DNA of 64,000 nucleotides from NCBI GenBank assembly GCA_013388515.1, contig JACAFC010000094.1, positions 1 to 64,000 of the forward strand. The letters run 5' to 3'. Of this stretch, positions 1 to 61,905 are shown piece after piece. Position 1 is the first letter of the stretch. Each line of letters begins with the position of its first letter. The notes beneath the pieces were generated by a model. It saw only the letters and a list, made by a program, of their open reading frames with translations. It was not told where the DNA came from and searched no databases. Made by a program: the position numbers and the translations under genes. Origin of the DNA: Ignavibacteriaceae bacterium (GTDB lineage Bacteria; Bacteroidota; Ignavibacteria; Ignavibacteriales; Ignavibacteriaceae).

Positions 1-3000
1 ATATCTTCCAGTTGTTTTTTCTTCATTTACTAACGTCATTATCTCTTCACCAATCACATCATACAATTTCAATGTTACTAAACCATCCTCCTTTATTTGG
101 TAGTTTATTGTGGTTGTGGGGTTGAAAGGATTCGGATAGTTCTGCTCAAGCGAATATTCTTTTGGGATAGAGTTCTCTGCCAACACAATTTCTGTTATCT
201 GTTTCTTAGGTAATTGTTTGTTCTCTTCATAAATGCAATCGCTTAAGCAAAATTCGTAGTTCTCTTTAACAATCAATTTAACTCTTAGGTAATATTCTCC
301 ATTAGATATCGAAGCACAGTCTAACTTGTAATAGGTTCTTGCATCAATCGTGTCCTTTGTTTCAAATGCTATGTCTTTCACTTTAATTGCTTCTCCAGTG
401 CTTGAGTTTACCAATTCTATAACTGGTTTAATATTTTCAGTTGAGACTTGAGCTTTATCTCTCTTAATCACATAAGCACAATCAGAAAACTCAAGTTTGC
501 TGGTTGATGATAAGGGAAAGCTTTCTGTTGCCATTGCTGTGGTTAACCGTGCCGCATCTGTTATTTTTATCATATCACTTTCTGGTATAAAACGAATATT
601 CTTTCCATCCATCTTAACATCTCCAAGTCCGTAAACAATTTCTGAGTTGTTTTTGTTTATCACAGCCAAGCGTGCATAATTAAACTCATCTCCGTTGGTT
701 GTCTTCTGCATTGTGTTAAAGTTATAGGGAATTGGTTTTACTGGATATGGTGCTGGAACATTTCTATCAAAGCTTACAGCTTTAATGTGGTTAAATTCTA
801 ATCCATTACCAAGCTGTACATCTTGCCCCCAATAAGAAGAAGGTAAATTATAAATAGAAGTATAATTTCCGCCTACGAATTTAATGCATCGCGATTGGTT
901 ATACATATTTGTCCAAGCAATTATAGAACCATCGCTGCCCGAACTTCTTGAGTTATTGTTTGAAGGATAAGCTGCTGCACCATTGTCACACTGCCTGAAG
1001 GTTGACCATGTTGTGCCGGTTTTTCTTTTAATTACCACCGTTGGCACACCGGAGTTATAACCGCTCCAACTTACTACTGGATCTCCAGCATGAGTAGAAA
1101 GTGAAGGAGAAACATTATTAGTAAACCCAGAACCCGAGGACACAACTGCATAATCTACAATTGTTCCGTTAACATAAAATTTGAAATATCTTATTTCAGT
1201 GTTTCCGTTTTGGTAAGCTAAGTAGAAATTTTGAACCGCTGCAGTCAACGATGGATTTACACTGCTTGAAGTGGTATTACTTAACGAAAAACTCGAGTTA
1301 ACAGTCCCATCCCCCATTACCTTGGCAGCCAGCAATACTGAGGTTGAGGTTGGTTTGAACACAACATAAGCTACGTTATTCTGTGCAGCAACAACCGGCT
1401 TTGTATCATATGAATATGATGATAGCTCATAAACTGTCCTCACCCACTGCTGTACACCGTATTGGTACTTGGCCAATATTATGCCTTGTTCTATATACGG
1501 AAAAACTTCTCTATCTATTTGGTAAACAATGTAAACATAATTTAGTCCATCGTCAGACTCAGCAATTGAAGCGTCCTTAGCATTTGTGCCGTAAGGATTT
1601 ACTCTTTGTTCTTGTCCCCAAGTGCTGCCCCCATCGGTGCTTATTGTATACCAAACACTTCCCATACTTTCGTAAACCATGTGGAGTTTTCCATCCCCGT
1701 TTGTACGCACTATTTTACGCTGGCTGTTGGTGGAAAAACCGGAGGTTACACCGGAAAGCAAATGCCCTTTTAAGTTTGCTTGCACCGTTGCGTTTGCACT
1801 TTTGAATACAACCGGTGTTTCTAATGCAGTTGGGTATTGAAACTCCGCACTGCCTGTGGGATTAGCACTCCAATCCAGGAAATAAAAATCCCTTGTGCCG
1901 AGCGAACCGCCTAAATTTATTGATTGCGTTTGATTGGCTTTGACGGAGTAGTAGGGGGGTTGCCAATCAACTCCTTGATTCAAGAAGACGCCTTTGTCGG
2001 TGACTCCTTCTTTACCTGTTGGTTCATACATCCCGCTAGCCGGAACCCAGTAATTTGTTGGTTGCGAGTTATCACTTAGTGCATACCAGGGGTCTTGAAA
2101 TTGAAAATTACCCTTCCCGCTTATAAATGCTCCATCAAGTCTTGCTTCAATTTTACCATAGTTCATATCTACAAAGCGTGCATATTGGGTACCTGCAGAT
2201 GCAACCTGGAAACTATTTATAAGCTTATTTTTAACGAAATCAGTATTCCAGTGGTGATGTTTATAATCTGTACTTCCGCTCCAGTTTACAAACCTTTCAT
2301 TATTTGTTTCAGCATTATGAATCCTTTGTTCAACTAAATTTCTGGATTGACCGGATGGGATAATGTCATGGACATTTCCATCAACTTTAAAGCTGCCCCC
2401 GGCATTTGTTGTGCCAATTTGGTTTGTAAATGATGTATTATACACAACTGCAGGATTTATGGAGTATGAATAGTCATAATCGCTGCCAGTTTTTTCAGTG
2501 ATAATTGGAAGCAAAGCTCCAAAGGTTTTTGTTTCAATGTACAATTCACCATCATTTGAAAATTCTCCTAGATCCATTTTTTCCCACCTCACGTATGACC
2601 CGTTTGACCAAGTTACTACCGCTTCCATGGGTGCACTTCCATAACCATCAAAATTAATCCTTAATCCACCCTGACCGCCAGGGTACAGTAGAATATGGTT
2701 TGAAGAGAGATGACCAAGGTTACTGCCCGAACCGCTTACCGGATAACTGTTATGTGTAGCTTTTAAGAGCACTTGAGGAAATCCTGTAATTCCTGCTTCA
2801 TCATAACCAAATCCTTGAACAGCACAGCTGCCGGTATAGAAATTCCAAACAATAAATTCTGTAAAAGCTTCTTGTAACGAAGAACCAAAGTTTTGTAAAA
2901 CATAATCATAAGAATCTAAAACACTTTCACTCGGATAATTTTGTCTTCTTTGCATAAAAGCTAAAAGCAGAGGAGCAGTGCTATAGCTGTTATTGTCAAA

Positions 3001-57909: not shown

Positions 57910-59124
57910 ATGAAAGATAATTCTTCGTTAACAATTCTCTGTATGTCAAGTTACGAAAAGGGGCAGGAGTTTATGCGCCAATGCAAACGCGAGGGCTGCA
58001 GAGTAATTCTTCTTACTTCTAAAAGTTTAGAAAATGCTGATTGGCCAAGAGAAAGCATCGATGAAATCTTTTACATTCCCGATGTTAACAAAGAATGGAA
58101 TATGCGTGATGTAATTTACGGCGTTAGTTTTTTGTGCCGTACAGAAACTATCGATCGGATTGTTGCTCTTGATGATTACGATGTTGAAAAAGCCGCTTCA
58201 CTAAGAGAACATTTGCGATGCCCCGGAATGGGTGATACAACTGCACGATACTTTCGCGACAAGCTCGCCATGAGAACACGCGCTTATGAAGTCGGGATTC
58301 CAGTACCGGATTTTATTCACGTTTTAAATTATCAGCGAATTAAAGATTACATAAAACGAGTTCCTTTTCCTTATGTTGTAAAACCTCGGCTTCAGGCTGG
58401 AGCGCATGGAATAAAAAAAGTTCAAAATGAACAAGAGCTATGGAACAGACTTGATGAACTTGGTGATGAGCAGTCTTTCTTTTTGATTGAAAGATTTGTG
58501 CCCGGAACAATCTATCATGTTGATTCTATCATTTCAGAAAATGAAGTTGTCTTCGCTATTGCAAGTCAATATGGTAAACCCCCAATGGAAGTTGCTCACG
58601 AAGGAAGGGTTTTTACAAGTTCAACTGTGCTTCGTGGTTCAAATGATGAAAAAGCTCTGCATGAAATAAATAAGAAAGTTCTGCATGCACTTGGGCTTTT
58701 ACGTGGTGTTTCCCACAGTGAGTTTATTAAAGCTGATTCTGATGGAAAGTTTTATTTTCTCGAAACGTCTGCTAGAGTTGGCGGTGCAAACTTAGCCGAA
58801 TTGGTTGAAGCTGCTTCCGGAATAAATCTTTGGGCTGAGTGGGCTAAAATTGAAATTGGACAAGGTAAAAGAAACTACGAACTACCAACCATAAGAAAAG
58901 ATTATGCTGGTATAATAACATCACTCGCGAAACAAGAATGGCCAGACCTTTCTGCTTATAATGATCCTGAGGTTGTTTGGAAAATGAAGAAGAAATATCA
59001 TGCTGGATTAATTGTCTCGTCACCAAGTTATGAGCGAGTTCAGTCTTTGGTTGAGAATTACACTCAACGATACTATCGGGACTTTTTTACTTCACAGCCA
59101 TTACCGGATAAGCCAACAGCGTGA
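57910..59124 (+). CDS. ATP-grasp family ligase
   Basis: A 404-residue protein. Start at ATG 57910, with GAGGG just upstream; an earlier start at 57832 lies in the palindrome. The ATP-grasp fold is seen in PYVVKPRLQAGAHGIKKV, FLIERFVPGTIYHVDSII and FLETSARVGGANLAELV, which contains the metal-binding Glu and Asn region. Such enzymes join a carboxyl group to an amine or thiol using ATP. The substrate cannot be told. Confidence 0.82.
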   Translation: MKDNSSLTILCMSSYEKGQEFMRQCKREGCRVILLTSKSLENADWPRESIDEIFYIPDVNKEWNMRDVIYGVSFLCRTETIDRIVALDDYDVEKAASLREHLRCPGMGDTTARYFRDKLAMRTRAYEVGIPVPDFIHVLNYQRIKDYIKRVPFPYVVKPRLQAGAHGIKKVQNEQELWNRLDELGDEQSFFLIERFVPGTIYHVDSIISENEVVFAIASQYGKPPMEVAHEGRVFTSSTVLRGSNDEKALHEINKKVLHALGLLRGVSHSEFIKADSDGKFYFLETSARVGGANLAELVEAASGINLWAEWAKIEIGQGKRNYELPTIRKDYAGIITSLAKQEWPDLSAYNDPEVVWKMKKKYHAGLIVSSPSYERVQSLVENYTQRYYRDFFTSQPLPDKPTA

Positions 59125-59132
59125 GACGGCTT

Positions 59133-59399
59133 CTAATTAAGTCTTTCAATAAGCTCTTCAATTTGAGGAATCAGCTCTGGGATAGATGTCTTAGCTGCGT
59201 TCCATACTGCGGCAAATTCCGTCCCAAAGTATGAATGAATCAATATATCCCTCATTCCCGCCATTTCTTTCCAAGGAATTTTTGAATTTAGCTTAGATAT
59301 TTCCGGAGGTATTTTCTTTGCTGCTTCTCCAATTATTTCAAGCTTTTTTATCACAGCGCTTACGGTTTTGTCATCATCACAAAATTTTTCGAAATTCAT
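59133..59399 (-). CDS. HepT-like HEPN toxin, N-terminally truncated by a start-codon lesion
   Basis: The visible 88-residue frame has the HEPN motif RDILIHSY, i.e. R-x4-H-x-Y (Arg50, His55, Tyr57), the RNase and AMPylation site of HepT toxins. HepT proteins normally begin about 22 residues earlier. The upstream codons in the same frame do encode that segment (DYKLYLKDILNASNAI, to 59465) but have no start codon. The ATG that overlaps the antitoxin stop (TTATGAGAC, 59463-59470) is two bases out of frame, as if one GA were lost. The gene is probably disrupted, unless translation starts atypically. The start at 59399 lacks a suitably spaced ribosome-binding site. Confidence 0.7.
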   Translation of the reverse strand: MNFEKFCDDDKTVSAVIKKLEIIGEAAKKIPPEISKLNSKIPWKEMAGMRDILIHSYFGTEFAAVWNAAKTSIPELIPQIEELIERLN

Positions 59400-59465
59400 T
59401 CCCTCAACAAATTTTAGAATTGCATTCGAAGCGTTTAAAATATCTTTAAGATATAACTTATAGTC

Positions 59466-59756
59466 TCATAAGTAGATCAATTCGTTCATTATTTGTGACT
59501 CTATTTCCTTTCGTAATGCAGAAGTTGTAACAATATCCACTCTTTTATTTAATTTCTCCTCCAGAAATACCTTTAAGCCGCCAAGAACAAAAATTGAAAT
59601 ATTTTCTTCTTTTTCAATTAGTAAATCAACATCACTCGTTTCATTTTGGTCGCCGCGTGCATAAGACCCAAATAGGCCCACAATTCTTCCTCTAAACTTT
59701 TGTCGAGTTTCCTCGTTCAAGGTCTTAAGGATTTTAATTAGTTCTGATCTGCTCAT
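59466..59756 (-). CDS. MntA-type nucleotidyltransferase antitoxin
   Basis: A 96-residue minimal nucleotidyltransferase. The GSx10DxD motif is complete: GSYARGDQNETSDVD, with Gly30-Ser31 and Asp42, Asp44. In MntA-HepT modules this enzyme AMPylates the HepT toxin on the tyrosine of its RX4HXY motif. It precedes the HepT remnant, as in functional modules. The reading frame itself looks intact. Confidence 0.88.
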   Translation of the reverse strand: MSRSELIKILKTLNEETRQKFRGRIVGLFGSYARGDQNETSDVDLLIEKEENISIFVLGGLKVFLEEKLNKRVDIVTTSALRKEIESQIMNELIYL

Positions 59757-59914
59757 TTTTATTATCCAATATTTTTGCTGTAATAAAAATACTGATTTTG
59801 TTTGCTTCTCTTCAATGTATGAAAACAGATGTTTAATGTTTTAATAAAGCAGCTTTAAATTGATTTGTTTATGCTTAACAAATGATGATAAATCACCATT
59901 TTGCCCTTCTGCGT

Positions 59915-60706
59915 CTAATCAAAATACGGACGTTTGTAGTTTTGTCCATTTGGAAATTCTTCAATGAACATTTTTCTTACCATTTTTACTGTGGACAAGA
60001 ACAGTTTTGTTTCTTCTGTAAATTCATTTCCGAGTGTAAGTATCTCTTTCAATGCGGTAATACTTTTCTCAATTCCTAAGTATACAATACGTGAACTCAC
60101 GTTAAGCATTTCTTCATTAATTTCACGTAGATTTTTCTCTTTGGCTTTTTCAAGTTGTAGTTTCTCCCAAAAGCACATTCTAATCTTAACAGCAGCTTGA
60201 GGTAAGTACCATTCAAGGATTTGCAATTTTTTAATAATTGGATTAGCGACGTCATTTATTTCAATCTCTTGAGGAAACCTCTTTTTTGCTAGTTCACAGT
60301 AGGCTTCAAGTTCTTTGAGCATTTCTTCGGCAAGATGAATTAGTGGATTAAGTTCTCTCCTCTTGTCGTTTTGATTAGTGCCGTTACCATCGAATAAATT
60401 ATCAAACTCATCATCATCTTCTCCTCCGAATTCAAGTTCATCGTCATCTTCTGAATAATCGTAGGAGTTTTCCATATCAGAGTTTTGATTAAATATTTTT
60501 TCCGCATCTTGCAGTTCATCAGCTAATACTTTCGAAAAATGTTCATCGTCGGTGATATTTTCATCCTTAAGAAGATATTTTATTTCCCTTTCGGCTTCTT
60601 GCTTGAACAGCAAACAACGGTTTGTATATTGACACTCTTCGCACCACCTGTCGCAATAATTATAAATTCCAAAAATGTTTTCGTGCATAAAATTTAATTC
60701 ACTCAT
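59915..60706 (-). CDS. Uncharacterised protein with N-terminal Cys cluster
   Basis: A 263-residue soluble protein. Near residue 18 the sequence CDRWCEECQYTNRC places four cysteines in about 14 residues, which fits a zinc or iron-sulfur site. An acidic, Asp/Glu-rich region follows (about 80-115), then helical, Lys/Glu-rich sequence with a C-terminal NGQNYKRPYFD. No family recognised. Its ATG overlaps the stop of the upstream 76-residue cysteine-containing gene, so the two are likely translated together. Confidence 0.55.
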   Translation of the reverse strand: MSELNFMHENIFGIYNYCDRWCEECQYTNRCLLFKQEAEREIKYLLKDENITDDEHFSKVLADELQDAEKIFNQNSDMENSYDYSEDDDELEFGGEDDDEFDNLFDGNGTNQNDKRRELNPLIHLAEEMLKELEAYCELAKKRFPQEIEINDVANPIIKKLQILEWYLPQAAVKIRMCFWEKLQLEKAKEKNLREINEEMLNVSSRIVYLGIEKSITALKEILTLGNEFTEETKLFLSTVKMVRKMFIEEFPNGQNYKRPYFD

Positions 60707-61617: not shown

Positions 61618-61905
61618 ATGTCCGAACTTAGTAATGAATTGCAAGAGACTGTTAGGGTTAATGATGAACAGTTTAAGGAATTGATTACCCAAAACTCTTT
61701 ATGGCCAGAAGATTATCAATCAAAAACTAAGTTGGCTTCAGATTACGAGGACGAGGATGACATTGATGATGATTTTGATGAAGAGGAAGATGAGGATTTG
61801 TTTGACGAGGATGATTTAGAGGAAGAAGGCTACGAAGAAGATTTTGATTTTGATGATGAGGAGGAGGAGGAAGACGATGAAGAAGATTTTGGAAAATATA
61901 ACTAG
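61618..61905 (+). CDS. Highly acidic small protein
   Basis: A 95-residue protein with an ordinary helical N-terminus (MSELSNELQETVRV) followed from about residue 42 to the end by an almost pure Asp/Glu tail. AAGGAG precedes the ATG by ten bases, which supports expression. The gene ends (TAG 61903-61905) exactly where the convergent rfaD gene ends. I cannot name it. The acidic tail resembles those of chaperone-like or RNA-polymerase-associated proteins by charge only. Confidence 0.6.
   Translation: MSELSNELQETVRVNDEQFKELITQNSLWPEDYQSKTKLASDYEDEDDIDDDFDEEEDEDLFDEDDLEEEGYEEDFDFDDEEEEEDDEEDFGKYN

What the first reader, a model, noticed from the sequence alone, without database searches (positions are those of the whole stretch)
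59399..59470. Two-base loss at the HepT start codon
The antitoxin's TTATGA stop and the expected HepT start overlap, but the ATG reads into a stop after three codons (ATG AGA CTA TAA). Adding one GA would give ATG AGA GAC and restore a normal HepT N-terminus. The downstream HepT codons are otherwise conserved, including R-x4-H-x-Y. It looks like slippage in a short GA run, which would disarm the toxin while MntA remains intact.
Basis: seen in the sequence. Interest (0 to 1): 0.65.

Follow-up and report, generated by a model that had tools for sequence, protein, structure and literature searches.

The report
Toxin gene disarmed, antitoxin kept
A small bacterial toxin-antitoxin locus has lost two DNA letters at the very start of its toxin gene, which most likely switches the toxin off while leaving the antitoxin intact; a survey of about 250 related loci suggests that toxin-only damage is common in this family and antitoxin-only damage is rare, so the case is real but ordinary decay.

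Summary
On the minus strand an intact mntA (59756-59466) is followed by a hepT frame (59465-59133). The overlapping ATG (59469-59467) reads ATG AGA CTA TAA. Close relatives read ATG-AGA/AGG-GAY or AAY there, so the window is two bases short. HepT's frame has no ATG, GTG, TTG or CTG before the ATG at 59399. A start there would drop all of predicted helix 1 (residues 2-19). The rest of HepT is pristine: near-invariant residues are kept, including R-x4-H-x-Y.

Assembly error is unlikely: no other window gene with a counterpart in a sister species is frameshifted. Read support could not be checked.

In a survey of about 250 homologous loci, 27 others have a broken hepT beside an intact mntA (single stops, frameshifts, start loss, one insertion), against 2 with the reverse (p about 5e-6). 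The window is therefore one snapshot of recurrent, toxin-first decay of HEPN/MNT modules. The (GA)n junction is not a hotspot: 33 loci carry ATGAGAGA and only the window is short. Ordinary as a single case, with moderate interest through the asymmetry.

The parts
59466..59756 (-). mntA: minimal nucleotidyltransferase antitoxin, 96 aa, intact, GSX10DXD present
   Evidence: Pfam PF01909 E=2.5e-14; NCBIfam MntA 9.1e-11, below cut-off; 65% identical over full length to L033 MntA
59467..59469 (-). ATG overlapping the mntA stop (ATGA), the ancestral hepT start; here it reads ATG AGA CTA TAA
   Evidence: same position is the hepT start in relatives
59458..59460 (-). TAA stop met three codons after that ATG
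59462..59466 (-). site of the two-base shortfall (relatives have two more bases here)
   Evidence: junctions of L033, L004, L034-L110
59133..59465 (-). hepT coding frame without a start codon, open from 59465 to the TAG at 59135-59133; HEPN/DUF86 RNase-toxin family
   Evidence: Pfam PF01934 E=2.9e-25; conserved columns kept; open stop to stop
59397..59399 (-). first in-frame ATG of the hepT frame; would give an 88-aa product lacking helix 1

Best explanation
This is a chromosomal HEPN/MNT (HepT-MntA, class I, PF01934/PF01909) toxin-antitoxin pair in which a recent two-base deletion at the hepT start has abolished synthesis of full-length toxin. Ribosomes that finish mntA at TGA and would normally restart on the overlapping ATG now make only a tripeptide. 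The mntA antitoxin, upstream and untouched, can still be made. Shown: the two-base difference, the missing start, and the intact mntA and remainder of hepT. Inferred: loss of toxin production, its recency, and that once the toxin is dead the module is free to decay.
For: Relatives share ATG-AGA/AGG-GAY or AAY at this point. There is no other in-frame start before the ATG at 59399. The AF2 model (mean pLDDT 90.6) puts helix 1 at residues 2-19, all of it lost from the 59399 start; nearest solved folds are HEPN toxins. HepT is otherwise unblemished: near-invariant residues kept, equal numbers of lineage-specific residue changes in the window and in L033 (5 and 5), and pN 0.16 against pS 0.73 versus L033. 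No other window gene with a counterpart on the syntenic contig of a same-genus genome is frameshifted. Survey: 27 other loci with broken hepT and intact mntA against 2 reversed.
Against: No reads, strain variants or expression data are available. The genome has 293 contigs and a single copy of this locus, so a local consensus error is possible. The very good preservation of the remainder of hepT is also what an error or a population polymorphism would look like.
Confidence: 0.8

Rival explanations
1. Assembly or consensus error: the living organism has an intact hepT and the two bases were lost in a repeat-like GAGAGA in the assembly.
For: The genome is in 293 contigs with only one copy of the locus. 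hepT is otherwise unblemished.
Against: None of the window ORFs with a counterpart in the sister species is split by a frameshift, apart from the hepT region. The error would be a two-base loss outside a homopolymer. The toxin-biased asymmetry in relatives (27:2) is not what random errors would give.
Confidence: 0.13
2. HepT is still made at or near full length: by initiation at a non-standard codon (ATT, the ninth codon after the TGA), by a +1 slip on ATG AGA CTA TAA G (which would re-enter the HepT frame at AAG), or as an MntA-HepT fusion by reading through mntA's TGA, since both genes are now in one frame.
For: The frame is clean and conserved. mntA and hepT are in the same frame with one TGA between them. 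A single +1 slip at the TAA lands in the HepT frame.
Against: The CUA codon re-pairs poorly one base on (UAU). A random indel at the junction would give the same-frame arrangement about one time in three, so it needs no explanation. No MntA-HepT fused ORF was found among the loci of sets A and B. No relative shows the same arrangement.
Confidence: 0.05
3. A truncated but active HepT of 88 aa is made from the ATG at 59399.
For: An in-frame ATG with GAGGGA just upstream; the catalytic R-x4-H-x-Y lies downstream of it.
Against: It would lack helix 1 and the conserved Y4, D7, I8 and F18. The GAGG is only 2 bases from the ATG and encodes part of the V/T-E-G-M stretch common in relatives, so it is not a new site.
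Confidence: 0.04

Closest known systems
HepT-MntA (type VII toxin-antitoxin; Shewanella oneidensis SO_3166/SO_3165; PMC7641770)
   Same: Antitoxin first, toxin second; MNT with GSX10DXD; HEPN with RX4HXY; PF01909/PF01934, the class I architecture of that paper; predicted HepT fold nearest to 7ae8, 6m6u and 7bxo
   Different: Toxin start abolished; HepT and MntA are short and score below the NCBIfam cut-offs, so this is another branch of the class; AMPylation not tested
Decaying chromosomal toxin-antitoxin systems (ccdO157 and other E. coli TA loci; reviewed in PMC7167474 and PMC2654758)
   Same: A chromosomal TA locus losing its toxin by simple mutation; the reviews describe decay by deletion or nonsense mutations and inactive toxin mutants arising by drift
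   Different: A different TA family; here one start-site deletion in one genome, plus a cross-species count for HEPN/MNT
Orphan antitoxins of Klebsiella and E. coli (PMC7192599, PMC10790755)
   Same: Antitoxin persisting without a functional toxin; degrading TA pairs are a proposed source
   Different: Here the toxin remnant is nearly perfect and still adjacent, so the event looks recent

Membership tests
HepT-MntA (class I HEPN/MNT) toxin-antitoxin | MNT domain (PF01909) with GSX10DXD | tested here: met
   PF01909 2.5e-14; sequence GSYARGDQNETSDVD; motif pattern found
HepT-MntA (class I HEPN/MNT) toxin-antitoxin | HEPN domain (PF01934/DUF86) with RX4HXY | tested here: met
   PF01934 2.9e-25 for the open frame; RDILIHSY
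HepT-MntA (class I HEPN/MNT) toxin-antitoxin | Adjacent genes on one strand, MNT upstream | tested here: met
   the same order in almost all surveyed loci
HepT-MntA (class I HEPN/MNT) toxin-antitoxin | Translatable toxin gene with its own start | tested here: not met
   No ATG/GTG/TTG/CTG before the ATG at 59399; overlapping ATG stops after three codons
HepT-MntA (class I HEPN/MNT) toxin-antitoxin | NCBIfam equivalog models HepT_toxin and MntA_antitoxin above cut-off | tested here: not met
   29.5 and 41.6 bits against a cut-off of 60: a relative of the class, not the curated equivalog
HepT-MntA (class I HEPN/MNT) toxin-antitoxin | MntA transfers AMP to the HepT tyrosine; HepT is toxic as an RNase | not testable with these tools
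   needs biochemistry; shown for S. oneidensis in PMC7641770

The most novel reading that the evidence does not exclude
HEPN/MNT modules pass routinely through a toxin-dead, antitoxin-intact state, and the retained MntA has a selected role of its own (for example an anti-addiction AMP-transferase against incoming HepT toxins), so that toxin loss is adaptive rather than plain decay.
Probability: 0.12. Interest if true: 0.55.

Novelty: new member of a known kind. Interest (0 to 1): 0.27.

Why it matters
One disarmed toxin is ordinary. The useful part is that sequence alone shows a strong asymmetry: in this survey hepT was broken next to an intact mntA in 27 loci besides the window, and the reverse was seen in 2. 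That is natural genetic evidence that HepT is harmful without MntA in many lineages, and it gives a ready set of natural loss-of-function alleles. It also means that an annotated MntA does not imply a working toxin in roughly one locus in ten.

Tried and rejected
Near-identical strains carrying the locus: none found. The same-genus genome G079 has a decayed transposase-like remnant at this site instead. Viral contigs gave no relative. phmmer against PDB gave nothing below 0.01, but the fold search placed the model with HEPN toxins. A UGA-recoding or natural-fusion reading was rejected: no fused ORFs in sets A and B, and relatives use ordinary starts. A junction slippage hotspot was rejected as a general rule: 33 loci with ATGAGAGA, only the window short. 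L239 first looked like a broken antitoxin with intact toxin, but inspection shows both genes frameshifted. L109 was left out of the tally because its C-terminal truncation was not inspected.

Full report
What is there. The locus lies on the minus strand. mntA runs 59756-59466 (96 aa) and the hepT frame 59465-59133. Pfam gives PF01909 for MntA (2.5e-14) and PF01934 for the HepT frame (2.9e-25). The ATG overlapping mntA's TGA reads ATG AGA CTA TAA. The HepT frame has no ATG, GTG, TTG or CTG until the ATG at 59399. The loss puts hepT in the same frame as mntA, with only mntA's TGA between them.

Comparison with relatives. A scan of 84,980 species genomes gave 80 loci. In the near relatives hepT starts at ATG AGA/AGG GAY or AAY, with the ATG overlapping the mntA stop in many of them, for example L033 (76% identical HepT, 65% MntA) and L004. 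The window is two bases short at exactly this point. The HepT frame keeps the columns that are nearly invariant in the family; its few departures from a strong majority residue are shared with L033. Against L033, HepT shows pN 0.16 and pS 0.73; with L004 as outgroup the window and L033 lineages each have 5 private residue changes. The gene therefore looks freshly broken rather than long dead. dS is near saturation, so this is a weak clock.

Could a protein still be made? AlphaFold2 on 61 sequences (pLDDT 90.6) shows helix 1 at residues 2-19; the nearest solved structures are HEPN toxins 7ae8, 6m6u and 7bxo (Foldseek probability 0.98-1.00, E-values about 0.1). A start at 59399 removes all of helix 1 and the conserved Y4, D7, I8 and F18. 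Its GAGG lies only two bases from the ATG and is part of the V/T-E-G-M coding stretch common in relatives. A +1 slip at the TAA, a non-standard start, or TGA readthrough would be needed for anything longer; no evidence for any of these was found.

Error or mutation? The window was aligned to the syntenic contig G079:C33 of the one same-genus genome. None of the window ORFs with a counterpart there is split by a frameshift, apart from the hepT region; the other partial matches are contig ends, partial paralogues or spurious short frames. The assembly's indel rate is thus low, though a local error cannot be excluded without reads. At the same site G079 carries no mntA-hepT but a broken frame resembling a small IS200-like (Y1-type) transposase (the name is by eye, not tested). 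The pair is therefore not shared at this site by the two species.

Is it one of a kind? HepT hits were collected from the window's family (80 genomes), and from other families of the phylum. mntA and hepT were classified with profile HMMs, and the broken cases were read by eye in all frames or by their printed junctions. Result: both intact 212; hepT broken with mntA intact 28 including the window (11 including the window in the family, 6, 11 elsewhere in the phylum); mntA broken with hepT intact 2 (L115, L156, both N-terminal frameshifts beside A/T runs). A handful of further loci have both genes damaged (among them L158, L162, L227, L239, L248). Excluding the window the ratio is 27:2; with targets of 109 and 96 codons the two-sided binomial p is 5e-6. 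Loci were found through HepT, which works against finding broken hepT, so the asymmetry is conservative. Causes differ: single in-frame stops (L060, L064, L099, L103, L108, L127, L218 and others), frameshifts (L150, L160, L163, L237 and others), loss of the start (window, L169, L170), and an insertion of about 118 nt with inverted-repeat ends (L111). Several lie in single-contig genomes (L169, L172, L268, L269, L271). Start rules were looser for MntA in the first passes; setting both to the same rule did not change the counts materially.

Mechanism. The pair belongs by sequence motifs to the class I HEPN/MNT modules, in which MntA adenylylates a tyrosine next to the HepT active site and blocks its RNase activity (PMC7641770). 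It scores below the NCBIfam equivalog cut-offs, so it is another branch. Losing mntA first should be costly and losing hepT first harmless; the survey fits that. Decay of chromosomal TA loci by nonsense mutation or deletion, with inactive toxins arising by drift, is an established idea (PMC7167474, PMC2654758), and orphan antitoxins are known to be common (PMC7192599, PMC10790755). I found no paper in the held library that reports this asymmetry for HEPN/MNT, but the library is partial and I read only parts of these papers.

Verdict. GA slippage is a fair guess: relatives have (GA)3, but of 33 loci with ATGAGAGA only the window is short, so the junction is not a general hotspot. The finding is a real but ordinary instance of toxin-first decay.

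Noticed in passing
L111 2991-3451 (+): hepT of a Planctomycetota locus is split near codon 26 by an insertion of about 118 nt with inverted-repeat ends, like a small non-autonomous element; mntA is intact.
   Followed up: partly
L169 (closed genome G043:C1, around 1453754): The hepT start position reads ATA where relatives have ATG; no other standard start in frame.
   Followed up: partly
L170 (G042:C294) 1550-1580 (+): A second junction-type loss: the ATG near the mntA end reads ATG TTT AAA ATT TAG, and the hepT frame has no standard start.
   Followed up: partly
G079:C33 69164-69914 (L182), syntenic to window 59124-59917: In the same-genus genome the mntA-hepT site instead holds a broken frame resembling a small IS200-like (Y1-type) transposase; a variable site.
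   Followed up: partly
L162 (G079:C33 about 83 kb): Another mntA-hepT pair with both genes degraded, a few kilobases beyond the syntenic end of the window.
   Followed up: partly
G000:C17:3447-3764 (L001): The window's own genome holds a second, divergent mntA-hepT pair (HepT 40% identical) that looks intact.
   Followed up: partly
59466-59756: The MntA matches PADLOC's PDC-S09 candidate-defence models (5.5e-25), so defence annotation may flag this locus although its toxin gene is broken.
   Followed up: no
61618-61905 (+): A 95-aa ORF extremely rich in aspartate and glutamate, between a NUDIX-like ORF and a sugar-epimerase-like gene (names by eye).
   Followed up: no
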